Part shown: piece after piece, positions 11,612-24,659 of the stretch
How positions within the stretch are numbered: the stretch's first letter is position 1
Layout: each line of letters opens with the position of its first letter
Position numbers and translations under genes: made by a program
Virus record (IMG/VR): IMGVR_UViG_3300023279_000079
Location: 1-24,659 of that record
From: a virus
Reading direction: 5' to 3' (one strand)
DNA length: 24,659 nt
The notes under the pieces: model-generated
Told to the model about the DNA's origin: nothing
Seen by the model: the letters and a program-made list of their open reading frames with translations, nothing else
Database searches by the model: none

Positions 11612-14600
11612 CTAGGATACCGGGCGTCCCCGGAGTTGCCTTAAAAGGGGTCCAGCACCGGGCAACCTCGGCGCAGAACCAGAAGATACCATAAGTGCCT
11701 TGTTTGCGATAGGGGATTGAGAAACAGGCAGTTGCCGCCTTTTGACGGGGGCCGCAGCAGGAGGAACCTCTCCGCCGTCAGCAAAAGCTGTCTGCCCTCT
11801 CAAAATACTTTCCCGCATTTTAGGGGTTATATCAAGAGATTGAGCGTCTACTTCAGCAATACGACCCCTACCAATCTTTGCATCCTTGTCATGCTTACTG
11901 GCAAGTTTCTGCAATGCTTTGGGTACTATCTTATCGTAGTAGTCTTTCATACCCTCGCCGCCGACTGCCAGATCAACCCCAGATATGGATTGCATCTTGC
12001 TCTGCTTCGCGGGCACCGCGCTCACCATCATGCTGCCCTTCACGCTGGGATACTTCGCCTTGAATTCAAGCATGGCCGCGTGAGCGGCTTCCTTCGTCGG
12101 ATAACGCTCCGACCGGTTGCCGCGGGTGACATTGTAGAAAATAAACCCTGCATCGTCGGGTGCCGGCGTGTCGGTCATCTTCTTCGCGATGTCCTTGCCG
12201 AGTAACTCCTCCACCTCCTCCGGCTTCATCTTCAGCTTCGTCATGATCTCTTCCCCATCTTTTTGGGGATACACATTGTACGTGCCGTCGGCGTTGCGCA
12301 TGTACCGCACTTCATCAACGTGCTGCGACAGGTCGTACCGCTTCGCCTGCGTCGCGCCCGGCGTCCACATCAACTTGTCGTAGCCGCCGTTTGCCGCCTC
12401 GGTCAGCGCCCGCTTCAAACCCAGATCAGTCCAGTGCTGTGTGTTGGTAACGTAGGGTGCGGCTGGAATGCCATCAGCCTTGAACCCCTTCTTGCGTCCA
12501 CTCTGCGCCCAGTCGCTCTGCAATTCCTCGAGGTGGAGGATCTTCTCGCCATTCGGACCAGTGCGGTCAGCCAGTCGCAAGTGCGCGACGACGTTCGGCT
12601 GGTCCCAATGGGTGGATTGAAACCCGCCTTCATAAGTCACTGCAGGGTCTTGGCGCACTGTGCCGTTGACTGCTGCCGCGCGTTCAGCAGCACTGGCGGC
12701 ATTATCGTATGTACCGTCAATGTGTCCGTCTGGTCCCACCACTTTGAATTGTGGCAATTCATTCTTGGTAGGCGGCAACCTCATCAGCACTTCGCGATAA
12801 TTTTCACCACCGGGAAGCGTATATTCACTATATTTAGGAGTGCCCTCTACTCCATAGCCCGGATCTTCTCCCGCAGCTTGGTTAATTCTGTCAAATTCAT
12901 CCCAGTCTCCGCGCTGTACCGCAGCAGCAATGGCATCATCCCATTCACGAGTTGTCTTATACGGAGACGAATTGTTTTTATTTGATAAAATTGTTTCCTC
13001 AATCTTCGGCATACTCTGCTTAAAGTGCTGCGCTATCTCATCCCGTGTAACACTTGGACGATCTGCAAACGCCTCATCATATCCAGAGTTTTCTATCTCA
13101 GCGGGCCTCACACCGGCATTACGCAACATGGAATTAAACTGCTGTGGCGTACCCTTCGCCTGCGGGAAGTTCTGGGCAGTCTCTGCTGCGTGACTATAAA
13201 AGCCCATAGGAGATAGATCTCTTTGGGGCTGCTCAGGCTCCTCACCCTTGGCTGCACCACCGTCAGCAAAGTAGCTTTCAAAACCCCAGCCACCAAAGCC
13301 ATCCCATGAATTGCCGCCATAGCCCAAGTTAAGGCCAGCGTTGGAGTAGTTATTCAAATCAGTGCTGAATGTGGTCAGGCCACTGGCACCGCCAAGATCC
13401 CCGCTGCCGGAGAAGCTGCCATAATCACTGGGGTTTACCGACAGATTGGTGAATACGGGCATGGACTTGTAATCGGTATCCAACCCTACGGTGTAGTTGT
13501 CATAGTTTGGCGTATAAGAAGAAACGTCATCAAGAGGAGTAAACTCATACGCGCCAGATGGTTCCGTAGGCTCAACGGCATGGAAATTTATTGCCAGATC
13601 ATCCGGCCTTGGAGGAGGAACCGGAATCGTACCCGGTGCGCTAGATCCTACATCTGGGGGGCGCACTGGAGGGACAGGAGGGATTTCATAAAACTTGGCC
13701 AGACGGTCTGCCTCGTTGCCGTAGATGAAGAAGCTATGGCCGCCAAGCTGATTGAAGTTAGACAAGTTAGTCCCAGCCCGCTCTGCTACGCGCCGGTTGT
13801 AATCCTCAGATGCCTTATTGAAGTTTGTGATGTTCTTATAAGGTTCCAGAGCATCCTGCATGTTGCCTTGCAGGTAATTGGTGGCACGGTTCCAAGCCTC
13901 CGCAGCAGCGTCAGCATCCGTCTTAACGCCAAAACCGCTACGGGCTTCCCCATACATCATAGCAGCAAGATTGCGGGCATCGGCCCCAGAAAACTCACCC
14001 ATAGACCCAGTAATCGTACCCGGCGCAATCTCATTGTTCTTCAGGTAATTATCAATAGCGTTCTGGCTATTCTGGTTGTAGCCCAGATACTGGCCCTTCT
14101 GGGAAACTATGTCGCCAATAGGCTGTCCCTGCAATAGTGATCTGTTGTAGGCGGTCTGGGCTTCCAGATAACCAGCAAATGGCTGATAGGAATCATTAGT
14201 CGCGGACTGACTGCTACCCATTGAAGAATCATAGAAGTGCGGCATCAGATCATTGTAGGATAGATCAGTGCTATCCCAGTAGTCTAAGCCACCGGTATCT
14301 GCTTCTCGGCCTAGCTGGGTTTGATAAATATCCTGTATCTGTTCTCTTGTAGCAGGGGCAGACGCTGTATCTGTATCCGCTACAACAGCCCCCTCAGGGG
14401 CAGACGCTGTATCTGTAGCCGCTACAACAGCCCCCTCAGTGGCATAGCCTACGCGGCCACCAGCCTCACGAGATGGGTAAGCCGTTCCAAACACATGATT
14501 ACCAATACGGATAGCCGTCCCATTGTCATACATGCGTCGCAGCCAGCTTAAACCACTTTTGTTGCCTCTTTGTGCAACAATTGCAGGGTTCTGGAAGTTA

Positions 14601-15676
14601 ATTGCCCCCTTTGTGGGATCAGCAATATCACCGCTAATAACACCATCAACGATAGCCCCAACACTCTTGTACAGAGGCGATTCGGGGTTAATAGACATCA
14701 GGCTCTTTGCCCTTGTCATCCACGGCTCAAACTGCTTGGGAGCAAATAAAACGCTTTTAATATTGTCGCCCCATTTACCTGTATTCAAACGGTTTTTTAC
14801 AACATGCGCAACAGCAGCTTTTCCCGCCTCTGGCTCTCTTGCTGCTTCTCCAATAACAGTTCTGATCATCAAGTCCCGATCAGACGCACCGCCTATCATG
14901 TTCTGCAAAGAAGCATAACTCATGACAGGGGCAGCAGCCGCACGGGAGCCAGAGACAACGCCCTTTGCTACGGCAGCAGGGGCCTTGGCAGCCTTCTCCA
15001 TAGCAAGCATGGCATTGGAAGCCCGAACAAAGTCAGCCGGATCTTCAGACTGATTGTACCGTTCCCACGCCTGTTTGGCCGCAGCACGCGCCGCATCGTA
15101 GGCTCTGGTATCCGGCCTAGCCTGTGGGCGTACAACAGATGGACGAGTACCAATCCGTCCGGGACCAACATCTTGTGCCTTGGGTAATGGCGCAACTGCT
15201 GGGGCATCAGGACGTGGAAGCTGATAAAAATCAGGCCCTCCAGCCTGTTCTGGTGCAGTAGCCGCCACTTTGTTCAGTGGTCCAGCCCGCAGAGGGGACT
15301 TCCCAAAAACTGCAAAGCTGGTGCCACCGGGCATATCTACTTCTGCATCCGTAGCAGGGACAGGCTCGGGCTTCCCAAGCTGATAGAAGTTAGGATCGTC
15401 AAAGAGAGATGGAGTAACAGGCTCATCCCCCCTTGGCATATTCCTCATTGTCTGGCGCATCCGCATAGCCCCAGTCGGCTGGAAGCCACTTTCTATAGAA
15501 CGCGGTGCATCGGCCAAATCTCTGCGGGAATAAAGCGTATAGTCCTCATCCTCGGCCATTGGCTCTGGGCCAGTCAAAACCCTGTAATCCTCCGCAGGCC
15601 CACCATTATCAAACCCAGCACGGGGACGGATGCCGCGGGCAAGTTGAATAGCGCGGAGAAGTTTGGGGTTCGGCAT
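11612..15676 (-). CDS. Large multidomain virion protein: two cell-wall-hydrolase-like domains and a polyvalent-protein C-terminal domain (1354 aa)
   Basis: Residues 268-400 match the SleB/CwlJ-type hydrolase pattern (RTVIGEAAREPEAGKAAVAH, KNRLNTGKWG, APKQFEPW) with the expected Glu in GEAA. A 14-residue tandem repeat lies at 414-441. A DUF4214-like element follows (YQTQLGREADTGGLDYW, about 451-467). A second, weaker hydrolase-like block (AAMMYGEARSGF, AEAWNRATN) sits at about 565-600. A Pro-rich linker leads to a domain at about 975-1330 (LPGGENYREVLMRLP, HLEELQSDWAQSGRKKG, YDKLMWTPG, SLDITPKMRES). I know the last from large polyvalent proteins of phages and conjugative elements. FADGG motifs recur. 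It probably acts as an ejected virion protein that opens the wall. The start ATG shares one base with the portal stop (TGATG). Confidence 0.75.
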   Translation of the reverse strand: MPNPKLLRAIQLARGIRPRAGFDNGGPAEDYRVLTGPEPMAEDEDYTLYSRRDLADAPRSIESGFQPTGAMRMRQTMRNMPRGDEPVTPSLFDDPNFYQLGKPEPVPATDAEVDMPGGTSFAVFGKSPLRAGPLNKVAATAPEQAGGPDFYQLPRPDAPAVAPLPKAQDVGPGRIGTRPSVVRPQARPDTRAYDAARAAAKQAWERYNQSEDPADFVRASNAMLAMEKAAKAPAAVAKGVVSGSRAAAAPVMSYASLQNMIGGASDRDLMIRTVIGEAAREPEAGKAAVAHVVKNRLNTGKWGDNIKSVLFAPKQFEPWMTRAKSLMSINPESPLYKSVGAIVDGVISGDIADPTKGAINFQNPAIVAQRGNKSGLSWLRRMYDNGTAIRIGNHVFGTAYPSREAGGRVGYATEGAVVAATDTASAPEGAVVADTDTASAPATREQIQDIYQTQLGREADTGGLDYWDSTDLSYNDLMPHFYDSSMGSSQSATNDSYQPFAGYLEAQTAYNRSLLQGQPIGDIVSQKGQYLGYNQNSQNAIDNYLKNNEIAPGTITGSMGEFSGADARNLAAMMYGEARSGFGVKTDADAAAEAWNRATNYLQGNMQDALEPYKNITNFNKASEDYNRRVAERAGTNLSNFNQLGGHSFFIYGNEADRLAKFYEIPPVPPVRPPDVGSSAPGTIPVPPPRPDDLAINFHAVEPTEPSGAYEFTPLDDVSSYTPNYDNYTVGLDTDYKSMPVFTNLSVNPSDYGSFSGSGDLGGASGLTTFSTDLNNYSNAGLNLGYGGNSWDGFGGWGFESYFADGGAAKGEEPEQPQRDLSPMGFYSHAAETAQNFPQAKGTPQQFNSMLRNAGVRPAEIENSGYDEAFADRPSVTRDEIAQHFKQSMPKIEETILSNKNNSSPYKTTREWDDAIAAAVQRGDWDEFDRINQAAGEDPGYGVEGTPKYSEYTLPGGENYREVLMRLPPTKNELPQFKVVGPDGHIDGTYDNAASAAERAAAVNGTVRQDPAVTYEGGFQSTHWDQPNVVAHLRLADRTGPNGEKILHLEELQSDWAQSGRKKGFKADGIPAAPYVTNTQHWTDLGLKRALTEAANGGYDKLMWTPGATQAKRYDLSQHVDEVRYMRNADGTYNVYPQKDGEEIMTKLKMKPEEVEELLGKDIAKKMTDTPAPDDAGFIFYNVTRGNRSERYPTKEAAHAAMLEFKAKYPSVKGSMMVSAVPAKQSKMQSISGVDLAVGGEGMKDYYDKIVPKALQKLASKHDKDAKIGRGRIAEVDAQSLDITPKMRESILRGQTAFADGGEVPPAAAPVKRRQLPVSQSPIANKALMVSSGSAPRLPGAGPLLRQLRGRPVS
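11990..12660 (-). other. GC-rich, codon-shifted segment within the 1354-aa gene
   Basis: This part (about residues 1005-1229) is visibly more GC-rich and uses C/G-ending codons far more than the flanking gene, which favours A/T-ending ones. It coincides with the core of the polyvalent-protein domain. The change is gradual to read by eye but marked, suggesting acquisition from another source. Confidence 0.55.
14355..14438 (-). repeat. Two tandem 42-bp repeats
   Basis: Two direct copies of a 42-bp unit (14355-14396 and 14397-14438) are nearly identical and encode EGAVVAATDTASAP and EGAVVADTDTASAP. The repeat keeps the frame and forms a linker after the first hydrolase-like domain. Confidence 0.9.
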
Positions 15677-21201: not shown

Positions 21202-21256
21202 GAGGTGCGGGACATTTTTGTATAGAAGGTAATTATACAGAATTGTCCCGCTCCTC
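21202..21256 (-). other. Long interrupted hairpin directly after the primase stop
   Basis: Nested arms GAGG/CCTC, GCGGGACA/TGTCCCGC (8 bp) and TGTATA/TATACA (6 bp) align in register, giving about 18 bp of pairing broken by single-base mismatches and a four-base internal loop. On the minus strand it begins within the primase stop codon and is followed by a pyrimidine-rich TCTTCTTC, not a clean T run. It likely ends or processes the early transcript (for example as a double-strand RNase site). Confidence 0.65.
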
Positions 21257-22143
21257 TATCTCACACCTTTCAGTAACATATCATTCCAATCACAACCTTC
21301 GTCCGGCAAGTCTACCTTTACATCCAGACCACTGATTGCCAGCCGGTTAGCTAGAGCATAGGCTTTTGCTTGGCCGGTAAAGTTGTAATCGTTATCCGCA
21401 AAGATATGGATTTCCTCGGCAATCTCAGGCGGTTGCCACTTGGCTAACAGAGTGCCGTTGATAGCCGCCCAGACCGGCATCTTATAGATAATAGCCGCGC
21501 TCATGGCTGTCTCAATGCCCTCTGCAATCCCCATAATTGGGGCCGGTTTCCAAAGTTGGACAGCACACCCATCCGGTAAACGTCCAGCCATCACACGTTT
21601 ATTCGGTTCTATCTCAGCCTTGCGTCCCGAATCAGTCAGCAAGGTAATATGCAAGCTACTTCCATTACCTTTTTGGTCTGAGATTCTAGAAATCATAGCA
21701 GGGCAATTATGCGCAAACCCTTCCCTGATAGCCTCAGAGGCCCAGAAACGCCCGAGACGGTGTTTTAGGTAATCGTATACCGGGCCACCCTCTTCCGGGC
21801 GTCTGGAGGACCCCCAGAGGAGTTTACAGGCGTCTTTGTTCTTCCGATCTTGCTCGGCAACCGGCGATACAGTCATGTCAGGCTCATTGTTTAGGATCTT
21901 GTCTAATTCAGCAGCTAATTCGGCAAACGGCTTCTGGGAAACGCGGGAGGCCAATGTCATACCGTTGCCGGATCCGCATTGGTTGCAGTGCCAGATTCCG
22001 TCCAGGCCACCAGCGTACCTAAATCTGTCCTTCCCTGCGCACATCGGACACGGGCCATGCTTGCCGGTCAGGGCCGTAGCAGGGACGCCCACACATTCCA
22101 GAAGTTCAGGCCACCGGCCTCGGGCAGCGTCAAAGGTTCTCAT
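21256..22143 (-). CDS. DNA primase: zinc ribbon plus Toprim, no helicase domain (295 aa)
   Basis: The N-terminus has a zinc ribbon of the primase type: CPMCAGKDRFRY (Cys32, Cys35) and WHCNQCGSGNGM (Cys53, Cys56). The C-terminal part is a Toprim domain with IAEGIETAMSA (Glu208) and HIFADNDYNF (Asp250, Asp252), ending DLPDEGCDWNDMLL. This is the P4/phage primase layout that makes RNA primers at the fork. Unlike T7 gp4 it carries no helicase domain; a separate helicase is encoded directly upstream, overlapping as ATGA. The ATG at 22143 has a moderate AGGG site and is probably translated by coupling. Key acidic residues are present, so it should be active. Confidence 0.9.
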   Translation of the reverse strand: MRTFDAARGRWPELLECVGVPATALTGKHGPCPMCAGKDRFRYAGGLDGIWHCNQCGSGNGMTLASRVSQKPFAELAAELDKILNNEPDMTVSPVAEQDRKNKDACKLLWGSSRRPEEGGPVYDYLKHRLGRFWASEAIREGFAHNCPAMISRISDQKGNGSSLHITLLTDSGRKAEIEPNKRVMAGRLPDGCAVQLWKPAPIMGIAEGIETAMSAAIIYKMPVWAAINGTLLAKWQPPEIAEEIHIFADNDYNFTGQAKAYALANRLAISGLDVKVDLPDEGCDWNDMLLKGVR

Positions 22144-23627
22144 GCCGCACCCTTCCGCTTCCGAGCATAGGCTTTGGCAATGTTGTAATGCTGGATCCAG
22201 CTCTGGGTTTCCATGCTAACGTACCGGGCTGGTTCTTTCTCAATCCGATGCTCGGGCCAAACACCGAGGCGTTTCTTGTACGCATGGGCTGCCCAACCAT
22301 CTTTCCAGCCCCTGCTGCCGCAATGGCATAGCAAGTCAGAGTAAAACGCCTGTTTGCGCTCCAACGGCCAATCCTTGGATTTAAGAGTCTGCTTACTGTT
22401 ACGGTCCAGTTCCATGAGGAACCCAGTAACCTGTTCTACTTGATCCACCGGCTCGGGCTTGTGTCCACAGTTCGGACAGACCGATATTTTAGGAGGTTTG
22501 AGATACGCGCACTTGGGACATTCTTTCGGCATCCGTTCTTTTTTCACAGCAGGGTTCTGACGGGCAGCGCCATCGTGCAGCGTCTTGTGGTTTATATCAT
22601 CCACAAAGCCAAGCCTAAGAGTAGTGTCTGAGTGATCTAGGATCAGGCAATCTTTTTTGCCCGGTGCAGTCCGCAGACCGCGGCCAACCATCTGGACGTA
22701 CAGCATCTCGGATTTAGTAGGCCGAGCAAGAATTACGCACCGGACATCCGAATCAAATCCAGTAGTCAGCACGCCAACATTGCAGATTACTTGGACATCG
22801 CCATTCTCAAATGCCCGGATGATCTTGTGGCGTTCCTCTCGGTCTGTAAACGCATCCATATACTCAGCATTGACCCCGGCCTCCTGAAACCGCTGCTGGA
22901 GGGTTTTGGCATGGATCCGATCAACGCAAAATGCCACGGTCGGCTGCCGGTCGGCCTTCTCAATCCAAGTGCTGACAATATCGGCCACCAACGCACCATC
23001 GGCCATCCGCTCCCCAAGATCTTTGAGGTTATAGTCACCGGCAGTAATCTTGACGCCTTCCAGATCGGGATGACCCGGAGCAAAAACCCTGAAGTCAGAC
23101 AAATGGCCTAGCTTGATCAACTGGCCAAGAGTTGTCGGGGTAATGAGATCGTCCCATCTATTACCCATTCCACGCGCCCACGGCGTAGCAGAGAGACCAA
23201 TGATCGGACGGTCCTTCCAGTCAGACCGCTTGAACCATTTGTCGTAAAAATTAAAATTTATGTGGCACTCGTCCACAATCGCAAAATCAGCATCTGGAAT
23301 CTCACGCCGCATTAGGGTCTGGACCGAGCAAACCTGTACCGGCTGCCGCCAATCCGTCCGCTCATGGATACCCTGCACAACACCGATCTCATCAATGCCG
23401 ACGCCTTCAAACCGAAATACAGTCTGATCAATCAAAGTCAGCGCCGGGACGACAAACATAACCTTGCTGTCCTTAGCCCGAGCCATACGGATGATCTCCG
23501 CAGCAATGATGGTCTTGCCTGCCCCGGTTGGTGCCATCAACACCGGCCTGCGCTTGCCTGATCGTAAGCTAAGTTTCAGCTTATCAATGGCGGCCTTCTG
23601 GTAATCTCTCAAGATCAAGTCAGTCAT
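22140..23627 (-). CDS. Superfamily 2 DEAD/DEAH-type helicase (495 aa)
   Basis: An ATP-dependent nucleic-acid helicase. Motif I is APTGAGKT (residues 32-39), motif II is DECH (119-122), motif III is LSATPW (145-150), and the second RecA-like half carries VLTTGFDSDVR and QMVGRGLRTA (motifs V and VI). A zinc ribbon (CPKCAYL and CPNCGHKP) lies near residues 375-395, with a helical tail after it. This plan is that of type III restriction-subunit-like or RAD25-type helicases found in many phage replication modules. It lies head to tail with the primase and probably acts at the replication fork or in recombination. The start at 23627 has only a weak site, near a possible TTGGAC-N17-TAGACT promoter. 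Confidence 0.9.
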   Translation of the reverse strand: MTDLILRDYQKAAIDKLKLSLRSGKRRPVLMAPTGAGKTIIAAEIIRMARAKDSKVMFVVPALTLIDQTVFRFEGVGIDEIGVVQGIHERTDWRQPVQVCSVQTLMRREIPDADFAIVDECHINFNFYDKWFKRSDWKDRPIIGLSATPWARGMGNRWDDLITPTTLGQLIKLGHLSDFRVFAPGHPDLEGVKITAGDYNLKDLGERMADGALVADIVSTWIEKADRQPTVAFCVDRIHAKTLQQRFQEAGVNAEYMDAFTDREERHKIIRAFENGDVQVICNVGVLTTGFDSDVRCVILARPTKSEMLYVQMVGRGLRTAPGKKDCLILDHSDTTLRLGFVDDINHKTLHDGAARQNPAVKKERMPKECPKCAYLKPPKISVCPNCGHKPEPVDQVEQVTGFLMELDRNSKQTLKSKDWPLERKQAFYSDLLCHCGSRGWKDGWAAHAYKKRLGVWPEHRIEKEPARYVSMETQSWIQHYNIAKAYARKRKGAA

Positions 23628-23710: not shown

Positions 23711-24212
23711 CTTAGTCTATGTGTCTCTTACTAAGTCCGTGTTTGTTGGTGGAACCTGAGCAAGGGACAAAGGGAACTATCCCCGCCATTTTACTGGCAG
23801 GGCGTCCCCTCGTTCCAATGAGATCTTGTTTGCCGGAGCCAACCGTCGCATCGGGACACCACTGGCTGAGTAGACCAGCAGCAGACACGCAACTTTCGGA
23901 GACTATAGACTCTCTCCGGTGTCCCCCCTTCGTGCCTTCGGGCTGGGGTTTGGCTATGGACACATCCCACAGTAACCATGTCCCGCTGGTGCCTGTCGTT
24001 TTTCACCGACGCCCGGATGCCCCCGGATTTCCAGCGGTAGAACCGAAGCTGTGCCTGTGCTGGGCAGAGGCGTTGCGGTTAAGTTCTTTGCGAGAGAGTC
24101 TTGACGGTGATACTATGTAAAGGTAGTATCCACTTCAAGAACCGTTCTTCCCGCGAAGAAGTTGTTCGGTTCTGTAGCCCCCCTTGAGCCTTGGCTCGGG
24201 GGGTTACTTTTT
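23711..24212 (+). ncRNA. Candidate large structured noncoding RNA (about 500 nt)
   Basis: No credible protein is coded here, yet the plus strand tiles with stems. They are CTTAG/CTAAG (23711, 23731), GGAAC/GTTCC (23773, 23812) enclosing CCCCGCCA/TGGCAGGG (one C-A mismatch), and GGGACACC/GGTGTCCC (23853, 23918) enclosing CTGG/CCAG and GGAGA/TCTCC. Next are CCCC/GGGG around GCC-UUCG-GGC (23934-23943), GGACA/TGTCC, CCGCTGG/CCAGCGG (23983, 24031), AACCG/CGGTT (24041, 24076), and GATACTA/TAGTATC (24109, 24124). Last comes AGAACCG-UUCUUC-CCGC-GAAGAA/CGGTTCT (24138-24173), which touches the terminator. Multi-branch junctions, the UUCG loop sense and the T-tract give the plus strand as template sense. 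It resembles in size the phage RNAs ROOL or GOLLD, but I cannot assign it. Confidence 0.65.
24174..24212 (+). terminator. Strong intrinsic terminator of the plus-strand RNA
   Basis: GTAGCCCCCC (24174-24183) pairs with GGGGGGTTAC (24198-24207), with an inner GAGC-CTTG-GCTC hairpin, and five Ts follow at 24208-24212. On the minus strand no T run follows the hairpin, so it points to plus-strand transcription ending here, tail to tail with the HTH gene. Confidence 0.85.
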
Positions 24213-24217
24213 ACAGG

Positions 24218-24388
24218 CTACCTGTTGCTGCGCATCCTGTCAATCAGAATAACAACCGCGGTGGGGATACGGTGTACACCGCCAATCCAATTGTAGACAG
24301 TGCGTTCGGTCACTCCCATCAGTGCGCCGAATTTTTTGTAGTCCAACCGCAGTTCTACCAGTGCCTGTTTCAGTTCATCCGCTTCCAT
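24218..24388 (-). CDS. Small helix-turn-helix regulator (56 aa)
   Basis: A complete short gene from ATG 24388 to TAG 24218. Residues 18-48 form a helix-turn-helix of the XRE/phage Cro type: KKFGALMGVTERTVYNWIGG, then a turn and a hydrophobic helix VHRIPTAVVILIDRM. The protein is only long enough for the DNA-binding domain and presumably works as a dimer. It is convergent with the structured RNA, whose terminator ends 6 bases before its stop. A purine-rich AGAGAAGAAAG lies upstream of the ATG; it is a weak site. As the first minus-strand phage gene at the right edge, it may control early transcription. The operator cannot be named; TTGTT-N8-AACAA at about 24448-24465 is one possible inverted repeat. 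Confidence 0.8.
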   Translation of the reverse strand: MEADELKQALVELRLDYKKFGALMGVTERTVYNWIGGVHRIPTAVVILIDRMRSNR

Positions 24389-24422: not shown

Positions 24423-24659
24423 TCATAGGTTCATCCTAATTTTATCGTTGTTACTAACAGAACAATAGCCTGGACGCAACGTCAAATCCAAAGTCTCTTT
24501 GGCATCACCGTCGCCCTGATGGCAGTCACCGCAATATCGGTCGAGGACCGGTTGGACGTAACGCAGGTAGCTTACCGTGTCCTGCCGGCCCCACGGCGGA
24601 GGAGTAATCTGGCGAGGTTCGCGGGACAGTGCGATCGAGCCCGCGGCATACTCCGGAGC
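24423..24659 (-). CDS. Fragment of a planctomycete-type c-cytochrome-like protein (78 aa, broken)
   Basis: The minus strand from the window edge to TGA at 24423 is open. It reads SREPRQITPPPWGRQDTVSY, then a YVQPVLDRYC segment, GDCHQGDGDAKETLDLTLRPG, then an unrelated YCSVSNNDKIRMNL. CGDCH is a haem-c attachment motif (CxxCH). The surrounding pattern, VQPVLDRYC-x-CH-GDG then LDLTLRP, is one I know from large exported cytochrome/HzsA-related proteins of Planctomycetota and relatives. In those proteins the chain continues for hundreds of residues after LTLRPG, whereas here the likeness ends at about 24467. The stretch is GC-rich relative to the phage. It is a bacterial gene piece joined to phage DNA. 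Confidence 0.65.
   Translation of the reverse strand, partial: APEYAAGSIALSREPRQITPPPWGRQDTVSYLRYVQPVLDRYCGDCHQGDGDAKETLDLTLRPGYCSVSNNDKIRMNL

What the first reader, a model, noticed from the sequence alone, without database searches (positions are those of the whole stretch)
23711..24212. Plus-strand, multi-branched structured RNA of about 500 nt facing against the whole phage operon
Directly seen: at least ten well-spaced stems, several perfect at 7-8 bp (GGGACACC/GGTGTCCC, CCGCTGG/CCAGCGG, GATACTA/TAGTATC, AGAACCG/CGGTTCT), nested into three-way junctions, with a C(UUCG)G tetraloop. The chain ends in a strong intrinsic terminator that touches the last hairpin. No gene is likely in any frame. 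Known: phages carry huge ornate RNAs (GOLLD, ROOL) with little-known roles. Inference: this is a member of such a class or a new one, transcribed divergently from the helicase.
Basis: partly seen in the sequence, partly recalled or inferred. Interest (0 to 1): 0.88.

Follow-up and report, generated by a model that had tools for sequence, protein, structure and literature searches.

The report
New pseudoknotted RNA family in alphaproteobacterial phages
A previously undescribed, intricately folded RNA lies between phage genes (on the opposite DNA strand from the one first proposed), recurs in many phages, prophages and genomic islands of alphaproteobacteria, and carries a short 'address' that exactly repeats the sequence at its own end, as if it were built to recognise that spot.

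Summary
The structured RNA is real, but on the MINUS strand, co-directional with the phage genes (HTH gene - RNA - helicase), at about 24212 to 23740. Rfam 15 has no match. I found more than 60 homologues in freshwater phage contigs, Paracoccus phage Shpa, prophages and integrase-AlpA islands; a covariance model hits 33 of 395 genomes of the family of Paracoccus denitrificans and 12 of 385 of its class. Covariation is overwhelming: 304 compensatory cells against 113 +/- 9 shuffled and at most 110 when slid. It supports about 8 helices, two pseudoknots and a kissing loop. G.U versus A.C counts (97:30) fix the strand. Unexpectedly, each RNA contains a variable 6-11 nt segment just after an invariant GGCUCCGG that is repeated exactly at the RNA's 3' end: 43 of 59 exact at one fixed offset, 15 different sequences, permutation maximum 14. 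This direct-identity coupling suggests a guide that can pair with the template DNA strand at the RNA's own 3' boundary. Function is not shown. GOLLD/ROOL membership is not supported.

The parts
23740..24212 (-). Whole structured RNA (5' end near 24212, 3' end near 23740), between the HTH gene and the helicase gene
   Evidence: Covarying homologues; strand from G.U/A.C counts; model R1 hits window 23739-24025 (-), 166 bits, E 7e-52
23739..24025 (-). Conserved core (288 model positions) shared by all members
24026..24212 (-). 5' extension found only in the window's subgroup (L317, L119, L148, L151, L155, L386, L122)
   Evidence: Alignments A3 and A7
24178..24203 (-).
   Evidence: comparable hairpin just upstream of the core in many members
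24039..24173 (-). Helix P0 of the 5' extension: 24165-24173 with 24039-24047; CCGAA/UUCGG in W and L119 becomes CCAAG/CUUGG in L148 and L155
   Evidence: Read from A3/A7
23983..24037 (-).
   Evidence: Covarying; W row mis-aligned in A5, coordinates read
23969..23996 (-). Pseudoknot PK2: 23993-23996 with 23969-23972 (loop of H6 with downstream CCAC-type strand)
   Evidence: 96.3% of cells paired, all 4 pairs with double changes; W coordinates
23919..23963 (-). Helix H4: 23958-23963 with 23919-23924, extended by H4b 23945-23948 with 23925-23928
   Evidence: 88% and 95% of cells paired, all pairs with double changes
23884..23936 (-). Pseudoknot PK1: 23932-23935 with 23885-23888 (loop of H4b with segment between H3 and H2)
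   Evidence: 96.3% of cells paired; 5-mer complementarity 90% observed against 11% expected
23897..23918 (-). Helix H3: 23913-23918 with 23897-23902; its third pair is G.U on the minus strand in 12 of 27 members
   Evidence: key to the strand call
23857..23882 (-). Helix H2: 23877-23882 with 23857-23862
   Evidence: 81.5% of cells paired, all 6 pairs with double changes
23868..23912 (-). Kissing loop between the H3 and H2 loops: 23909-23912 with 23868-23871 (GAGU/ACUC here; GAGC/GCUC in L317; GAUGG/CCAUC in L148)
   Evidence: Covarying pairs in A4; W-subgroup pairing read from A3
23833..23853 (-). Invariant segment CCNAWGCGACGG...GGCUCCGG
   Evidence: Invariant columns of A5
23827..23832 (-). 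r1: variable internal 'guide-like' segment, CAAACA, immediately 3' of GGCUCCGG
23740..23745 (-). r2: exact repeat of r1 (CAAACA) at the 3' end of the RNA, after CCACCA(A)
23765..23816 (-). Helix H1, long imperfect hairpin before the 3' tail
   Evidence: 86% of cells paired; 38 G.U against 13 A.C
24218..24388 (-). Upstream co-directional gene: 56-aa helix-turn-helix protein (YdaS-like, below the Pfam cut-off; phrog_4779)
22140..23627 (-). Downstream co-directional gene: DEAD/ResIII helicase, followed by primase 21256-22143

Best explanation
SHOWN: a new family of structured noncoding RNA, encoded on the same strand as the surrounding phage or island genes, with an about 290-nt core held by about 8 covarying helices, two pseudoknots and a kissing-loop contact; in the window a 5' extension brings it to about 470 nt. 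SHOWN: each RNA has a variable internal segment (r1) that is identical to the sequence at the RNA's own 3' end (r2), while different members have different sequences. INFERRED: it acts in trans or at its own locus as an RNA scaffold that presents r1 as a short guide. Because r1 equals r2 on the RNA-sense strand, the only partner found for it is the template DNA strand at r2, so r1 can form a 6-11 bp RNA-DNA hybrid at the RNA gene's 3' boundary. I think the most likely use is recognition of that DNA site (in the element itself or in a second copy) to start or bound a DNA or RNA transaction of the mobile element (priming, nicking, packaging, recombination or release of the transcript), with an unknown phage or host protein. 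The identity and strand I hold at about 0.95; the guide mechanism at about 0.35 (the value given below).
For: Covariation: 84.6% of cells paired, 304 two-sided changes against 113 +/- 9 in shuffles and 66-110 when slid, score 0.522 against 0.208; independent RNAalifold run on 16 Paracoccus-type sequences gives 30 of 57 pairs with compensatory changes. Strand: G.U 97 against A.C 30 on minus; RNAalifold -81.2 (minus) against -49.8 (plus). Direct repeat: r1 = r2 in 43 of 59 at a fixed offset, 15 distinct sequences, permutation maximum 14, mean 5.4; 103 of 126 close-relative comparisons with a different r1 keep r1 = r2; strongest direct signal in an all-against-all 5-mer scan, 70% against 11% expected; no complement of r within the core and 60-70 nt flanks, and for the longer repeats no complement near the RNA in the fetched sequence. 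The neighbour genes differ (TerL, helicase, primase, AlpA, replication proteins) while RNAs in different settings share the same r: CCAGCA in both L184 (TerL) and Shpa (primase), so r is not set by the adjacent protein. In L148/L151/L155 and L484/L489 the RNA is followed by opposite-strand ORFs, so it is not simply a leader of a particular gene.
Against: No expression data, no protein partner, no assay. Six to eleven base pairs alone make a weak hybrid. r1 and r2 could instead be two copies of a protein-binding site, or compete for an unseen partner RNA outside the fetched flanks. No RNA-less 'empty site' was found among TerL relatives, so mobility of the RNA gene itself is untested. Some divergent members keep no obvious repeat. 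A + strand T-run next to the 5' hairpin remains unexplained. Some sequences are related, so cells and pairs are not independent events.
Confidence: 0.35

Rival explanations
1. Cis-acting transcription element: the RNA folds behind RNA polymerase and, when r2 is in the RNA-DNA hybrid (about 9-10 bp, similar to the repeat length), r1 invades that hybrid and causes release or pausing (or, like HK022 put or the EAR element, modifies the polymerase). It would set the 3' end of the upstream mRNA or gate the downstream operon.
For: RNA starts about 30-40 nt after the upstream stop codon in many members; lies at operon joints (HTH/helicase, small gene/TerL, AlpA/cargo) or at an operon end; no minus-strand U-run terminator is seen at its 3' end.
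Against: Elaborate conserved fold and invariant loops exceed what known put or EAR elements need; readthrough would have to occur for TerL or helicase expression; no transcription data.
Confidence: 0.25
2. r1 and r2 are two copies of a recognition site for a cognate DNA- or RNA-binding protein of the element (operator pair or iteron-like), embedded in a structured RNA gene.
For: Upstream neighbours are often small DNA-binding proteins: HTH in W, AlpA/HTH_17 in islands; direct repeats are typical of such sites.
Against: The same r occurs beside different neighbour genes and different r beside the same kind of neighbour; copy 1 always sits next to invariant GGCUCCGG in the fold.
Confidence: 0.18
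3. Trans-acting structural RNA or ribonucleoprotein (for example a decoy, counter-defence RNA or host-protein trap), with the repeat serving an intramolecular or dimer switch.
For: Compact pseudoknotted fold with many invariant unpaired bases; varied gene neighbourhoods; up to three copies in one genome.
Against: No complementary segment that would make a switch was found; does not explain why r2 lies at the 3' end.
Confidence: 0.17
4. One reading: plus-strand ornate RNA of the GOLLD/ROOL kind ending in an intrinsic terminator and facing the operon.
For: Plus-strand hairpin plus T-run at 24178-24212 and in several relatives; the plus strand also folds well.
Against: Pairing statistics favour minus; no Rfam match; no tRNA island.
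Confidence: 0.05

Closest known systems
GOLLD and ROOL RNAs
   Same: Phage- and prophage-borne, conserved, multi-pseudoknot RNAs of unknown function (PMC12286853)
   Different: No Rfam match; shorter (about 290-470 nt); no tRNA island in the window; has the r1/r2 direct repeat; mainly alphaproteobacterial elements
IS110 bridge RNA / IS1111 seekRNA
   Same: Short guide segments in a structured RNA that match DNA at the element's own boundary (bridge RNA: PMC11208160; details from general knowledge)
   Different: No IS110-type recombinase among the neighbour proteins I scanned; much larger fold; only one, direct-orientation match was found
HK022 put RNA / EAR antitermination elements (from general knowledge)
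   Same: Structured RNA at operon heads or within operons
   Different: Those are much smaller, and I know of no variable internal copy of the 3' boundary in them; here the RNA can also be last in its operon
Rhodobacterales ncRNA motifs from intergenic-region screens (HRC-8-4, odc1, uORFC-8-2; PMC8632094)
   Same: Structured RNAs confined to alphaproteobacteria or Rhodobacterales
   Different: Those sit by cco, odc1 or cysS housekeeping genes; the paper's main text does not mention phage or terminase
Group I/II introns
   Same: Conserved pseudoknotted RNAs carried by phages; guide-boundary coevolution
   Different: No Rfam match; lies between genes after a stop codon; guide and boundary are identical, not complementary; no reverse transcriptase or homing gene seen next to it

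Membership tests
GOLLD / ROOL | Match to the Rfam covariance model | tested here: not met
   No hit at gathering score in the window or 13 homologue loci, none of note at E up to 10
GOLLD / ROOL | Location near tRNA genes | tested here: not met
   ARAGORN finds none in the window
GOLLD / ROOL | Forms homo-oligomeric nanocage | not testable with these tools
   Needs cryo-EM
Structured noncoding RNA (in general) | Compensatory covariation across homologues | tested here: met
Structured noncoding RNA (in general) | No conserved reading frame | tested here: met
   At most 7 of 27 members open in any frame
Structured noncoding RNA (in general) | Expressed transcript | not testable with these tools
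   No transcriptome data available
IS110 bridge RNA | Adjacent IS110/IS1111 recombinase (DEDD, Transposase_20) | tested here: not met
   Not among the adjacent proteins scanned; not every neighbour was scanned
IS110 bridge RNA | Guide segments matching element boundary or target | tested here: inconclusive
   r1 = r2 at the 3' boundary; no second guide for the 5' side found
Intrinsic terminator at 24178-24212 (+) as end of the RNA | RNA lies upstream of it on the same strand | tested here: not met
   Pairing statistics place the RNA on the minus strand, where this hairpin is 5'
Riboswitch / mRNA leader | Constant class of downstream gene | tested here: not met
   TerL, helicase, type I restriction genes, tail protein, or opposite-strand ORFs downstream
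Group I/II intron | Rfam intron model match | tested here: not met

The most novel reading that the evidence does not exclude
A new kind of RNA-guided element: a compact pseudoknotted RNA, shared by phages, prophages and integrase-AlpA islands of alphaproteobacteria, that carries a rapidly changing 6-11 nt guide always kept identical to the DNA at its own 3' boundary, and uses it (with an unknown protein) to recognise that DNA site for replication, packaging, excision or mobility.
Probability: 0.3. Interest if true: 0.95.

Novelty: categorically new. Interest (0 to 1): 0.88.

Why it matters
Few phage RNAs with this degree of conserved tertiary structure are known, and their functions are mostly open. 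This family is present in an isolated phage (Paracoccus phage Shpa) and in a prophage of Paracoccus denitrificans, so it can be tested in laboratory strains. Identity between an internal loop segment and the RNA's own 3' boundary, preserved while the sequence itself keeps changing, is a signature I know only from guide-type systems; it makes a specific, falsifiable prediction. If the guide reading holds, it would be a new RNA-guided principle used by phages and defence-bearing islands.

Tried and rejected
Coding gene on + (133 aa ORF) or on -: no family hit, frames not conserved. Known RNA families: none in Rfam, including a specific look for cobalamin-riboswitch-like motifs suggested by eye. 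Plus-strand RNA: accepted at first because of terminator-like T-runs, then rejected after the G.U/A.C test. Decayed Rep-like gene (present at this site in relatives G013 and G019): no similarity in the window. Direct nucleotide search of the phage collection with the window: nothing; homologues came only through helicase neighbours and motif patterns. Empty-site comparison at TerL: every TerL relative with a detectable upstream small gene still has 318-639 nt between the two, so no insertion boundary could be read. Complementary partner for r1/r2 in cis: none. Plasmids: no match to the P. denitrificans copy. Literature (open PMC papers only): no description found; that library misses most subscription journals.

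Full report
What was claimed. A plus-strand, about 500-nt multi-branched RNA at 23711-24212 that faces against the phage genes, ends in an intrinsic terminator and may be GOLLD/ROOL-like.

The window. It is an IMG/VR virus record of 24,659 bases, a phage fragment with terminase, portal, capsid, tail, helicase and primase genes, all on the minus strand. The nearest genes to the RNA are also on the minus strand: a 56-aa HTH protein (stop codon 24218-24220) and a helicase (start 23627). A second contig carries the same region with one change in 794 nt.

Observation. The region folds far better than shuffles on both strands, has no Rfam match and no likely gene. A direct search of 50,697 phage records gives nothing useful.

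Finding homologues. I used the neighbouring helicase: an alignment of three relatives brought in 80 phage loci, and blastn of the RNA region against their upstream sequence found L119, L101 and L122. Conserved pieces served as DNA patterns, and iterative profile searches gave 37 distinct members at E < 1e-4, including Paracoccus phage Shpa and prophages of Paracoccus denitrificans DSM 413, P. siganidrum, P. albicereus, P. maritimus and other Rhodobacteraceae. A covariance model then found the RNA in 33 of 395 genomes of the family of P. denitrificans, 12 of 385 of its class and 5 of 398 of its phylum, P. denitrificans itself counted each time.

Structure. RNAalifold on 16 Paracoccus-type sequences gave 57 pairs, 30 with compensatory changes. 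A strand-neutral search for Watson-Crick covariation found 27 strongly covarying column pairs, and from these I read helices H2, H3, H4, H4b and H6, a kissing contact between the H2 and H3 loops and pseudoknot PK1; H1 and PK2 came from the alignment. On 27 members from all subgroups, 84.6% of cells pair, with 304 two-sided changes against 113 +/- 9 in shuffles and 66-110 when the partners are slid.

Strand. G.U pairs are allowed in RNA while their mirror images on the other strand are A.C mismatches. On the minus strand there are 97 G.U against 30 A.C in the well-aligned helices, 41 against 8 in the window's own subgroup. The third pair of H3 is G.U in 12 of 27 members, in several sequence backgrounds. 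RNAalifold also prefers minus (-81.2 against -49.8 kcal/mol). So the RNA runs with the genes, HTH - RNA - helicase, and the plus-strand 'terminator' is its 5' hairpin. The plus-strand T-run beside that hairpin is real in the window and several relatives and remains unexplained.

Where it sits. The RNA core often begins 30-40 nt after the stop codon of a co-directional gene, but the genes differ: HTH before and helicase after (window, L317, L119); primase before, and opposite-strand ORFs after (L148, L151, L155) or more genes after (Shpa); a small unannotated protein before, terminase after (L184, L271, L217, L454, L455); integrase - ORF - AlpA/HTH_17 before, and type I restriction-modification genes after in three islands (L483, L487, L490). 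Among 80 terminase relatives 42 have the RNA by the model, and others have a more divergent RNA at the same place. The RNA therefore belongs to mobile elements rather than to one gene.

An unexpected feature. Immediately after the invariant GGCUCCGG each RNA has a variable segment (r1) that is repeated exactly at the RNA's 3' end after CUCACCA plus one base (r2). Examples: L425 GAGAGCAGGAC, L148 GCCTTCTGGA, L454 TTGAGCAGG, L412 CCGGAAC, L184 CCAGCA; the window has CAAACA at 23827-23832 and 23740-23745. In a scan of all pairs of positions this is the strongest direct-identity signal, 70% observed against 11% expected. At a fixed offset 43 of 59 members match exactly over 6 nt with 15 different sequences, where 5000 permutations never exceed 14; of 126 close-relative comparisons with a different r1, 103 keep the identity (my text pattern missed the window itself, so 43 is slightly low). 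For the longer repeats the fetched sequence near the RNA holds exactly these two copies and, in nearly all cases, no complement. The same r occurs with different neighbour genes (L184 and Shpa), so it does not follow the neighbouring protein. A weaker second direct signal links the GGGGC after PK2 with H1 (60% against 34%); I did not resolve it. The divergent terminase-linked RNAs read the same way (GTGAGCAG in L494, ATGGGCAGGT in L525), but there my background test was not informative.

What it most likely does. The identity and strand I regard as settled (about 0.95). For mechanism: r1 and r2 are identical, not complementary, so r1 can pair with the template DNA strand at r2; no other partner was found. 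I therefore favour an RNA that presents a short guide for its own 3' boundary (0.35), with cis-acting hybrid displacement at the polymerase (0.25), a protein-binding repeat (0.18) and a plain trans-acting RNP (0.17) as rivals. None of these has been tested experimentally.

Comparison with known things. It works somewhat like IS110 bridge RNA (a short guide matching the element boundary, PMC11208160), but no such recombinase was found beside it. It is not GOLLD/ROOL: no model match, no tRNA genes in the window, shorter. It is not among the Rhodobacterales motifs named in the main text of an intergenic-region screen (PMC8632094). My literature search covered only open papers, so an earlier description elsewhere cannot be excluded.

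Noticed in passing
L454:1827-2057, L184:1552-1815, L440:1230-1466, L217:2830-3054, L455:1802-2029: A family of about 75-90 aa proteins (ELDEIL...W.KGFA.SIARHGKRP.W.P..KQ..IMRR) directly upstream of the RNA in terminase-linked prophages; no Pfam hit and only a marginal PHROG hit.
   Followed up: partly
L483, L487, L490 (also L485, L489): Integrase - ORF - AlpA/HTH_17 - RNA architecture in chromosomal islands, with type I restriction-modification genes (HsdM, HsdS) as cargo in three of them.
   Followed up: partly
core142 and core523 of A6: A second direct-repeat signal inside the RNA: GGGGC-type segment after PK2 and in the 3' strand of H1 change together (60% observed, 34% expected).
   Followed up: no
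window 24178-24212 and relatives L155, L217, L232, L396, L385: Plus-strand hairpin plus T-run at the 5' border of the RNA in several members; may stop antisense transcription.
   Followed up: partly
L493, L500, L510, L518, L525 upstream of terminase: A more divergent structured RNA in the same position, missed by the model but carrying the same kind of repeat (e.g. ATTGGCAG twice).
   Followed up: partly
G029 (Paracoccus albicereus), G036, G030: Two or three copies of the RNA in one genome, at different places.
   Followed up: no
window 24475-24659 against L002: The near-identical contig diverges abruptly at 24475 into CCATAACC-type repeats, so the two phages differ upstream of the HTH gene or one assembly is chimeric.
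   Followed up: no
window 11612-15676: 1354-aa protein with an endolysin-like stretch, next to the portal gene.
   Followed up: no
L096 8558-8824, L097 about 2032-2358: In relatives without the RNA a small winged-helix, replication-initiator-like gene (MSFQAMAWAIKQ...) sits between HTH and helicase; in others a gene starting MALPYIPFYFGDYWRDT-like.
   Followed up: partly
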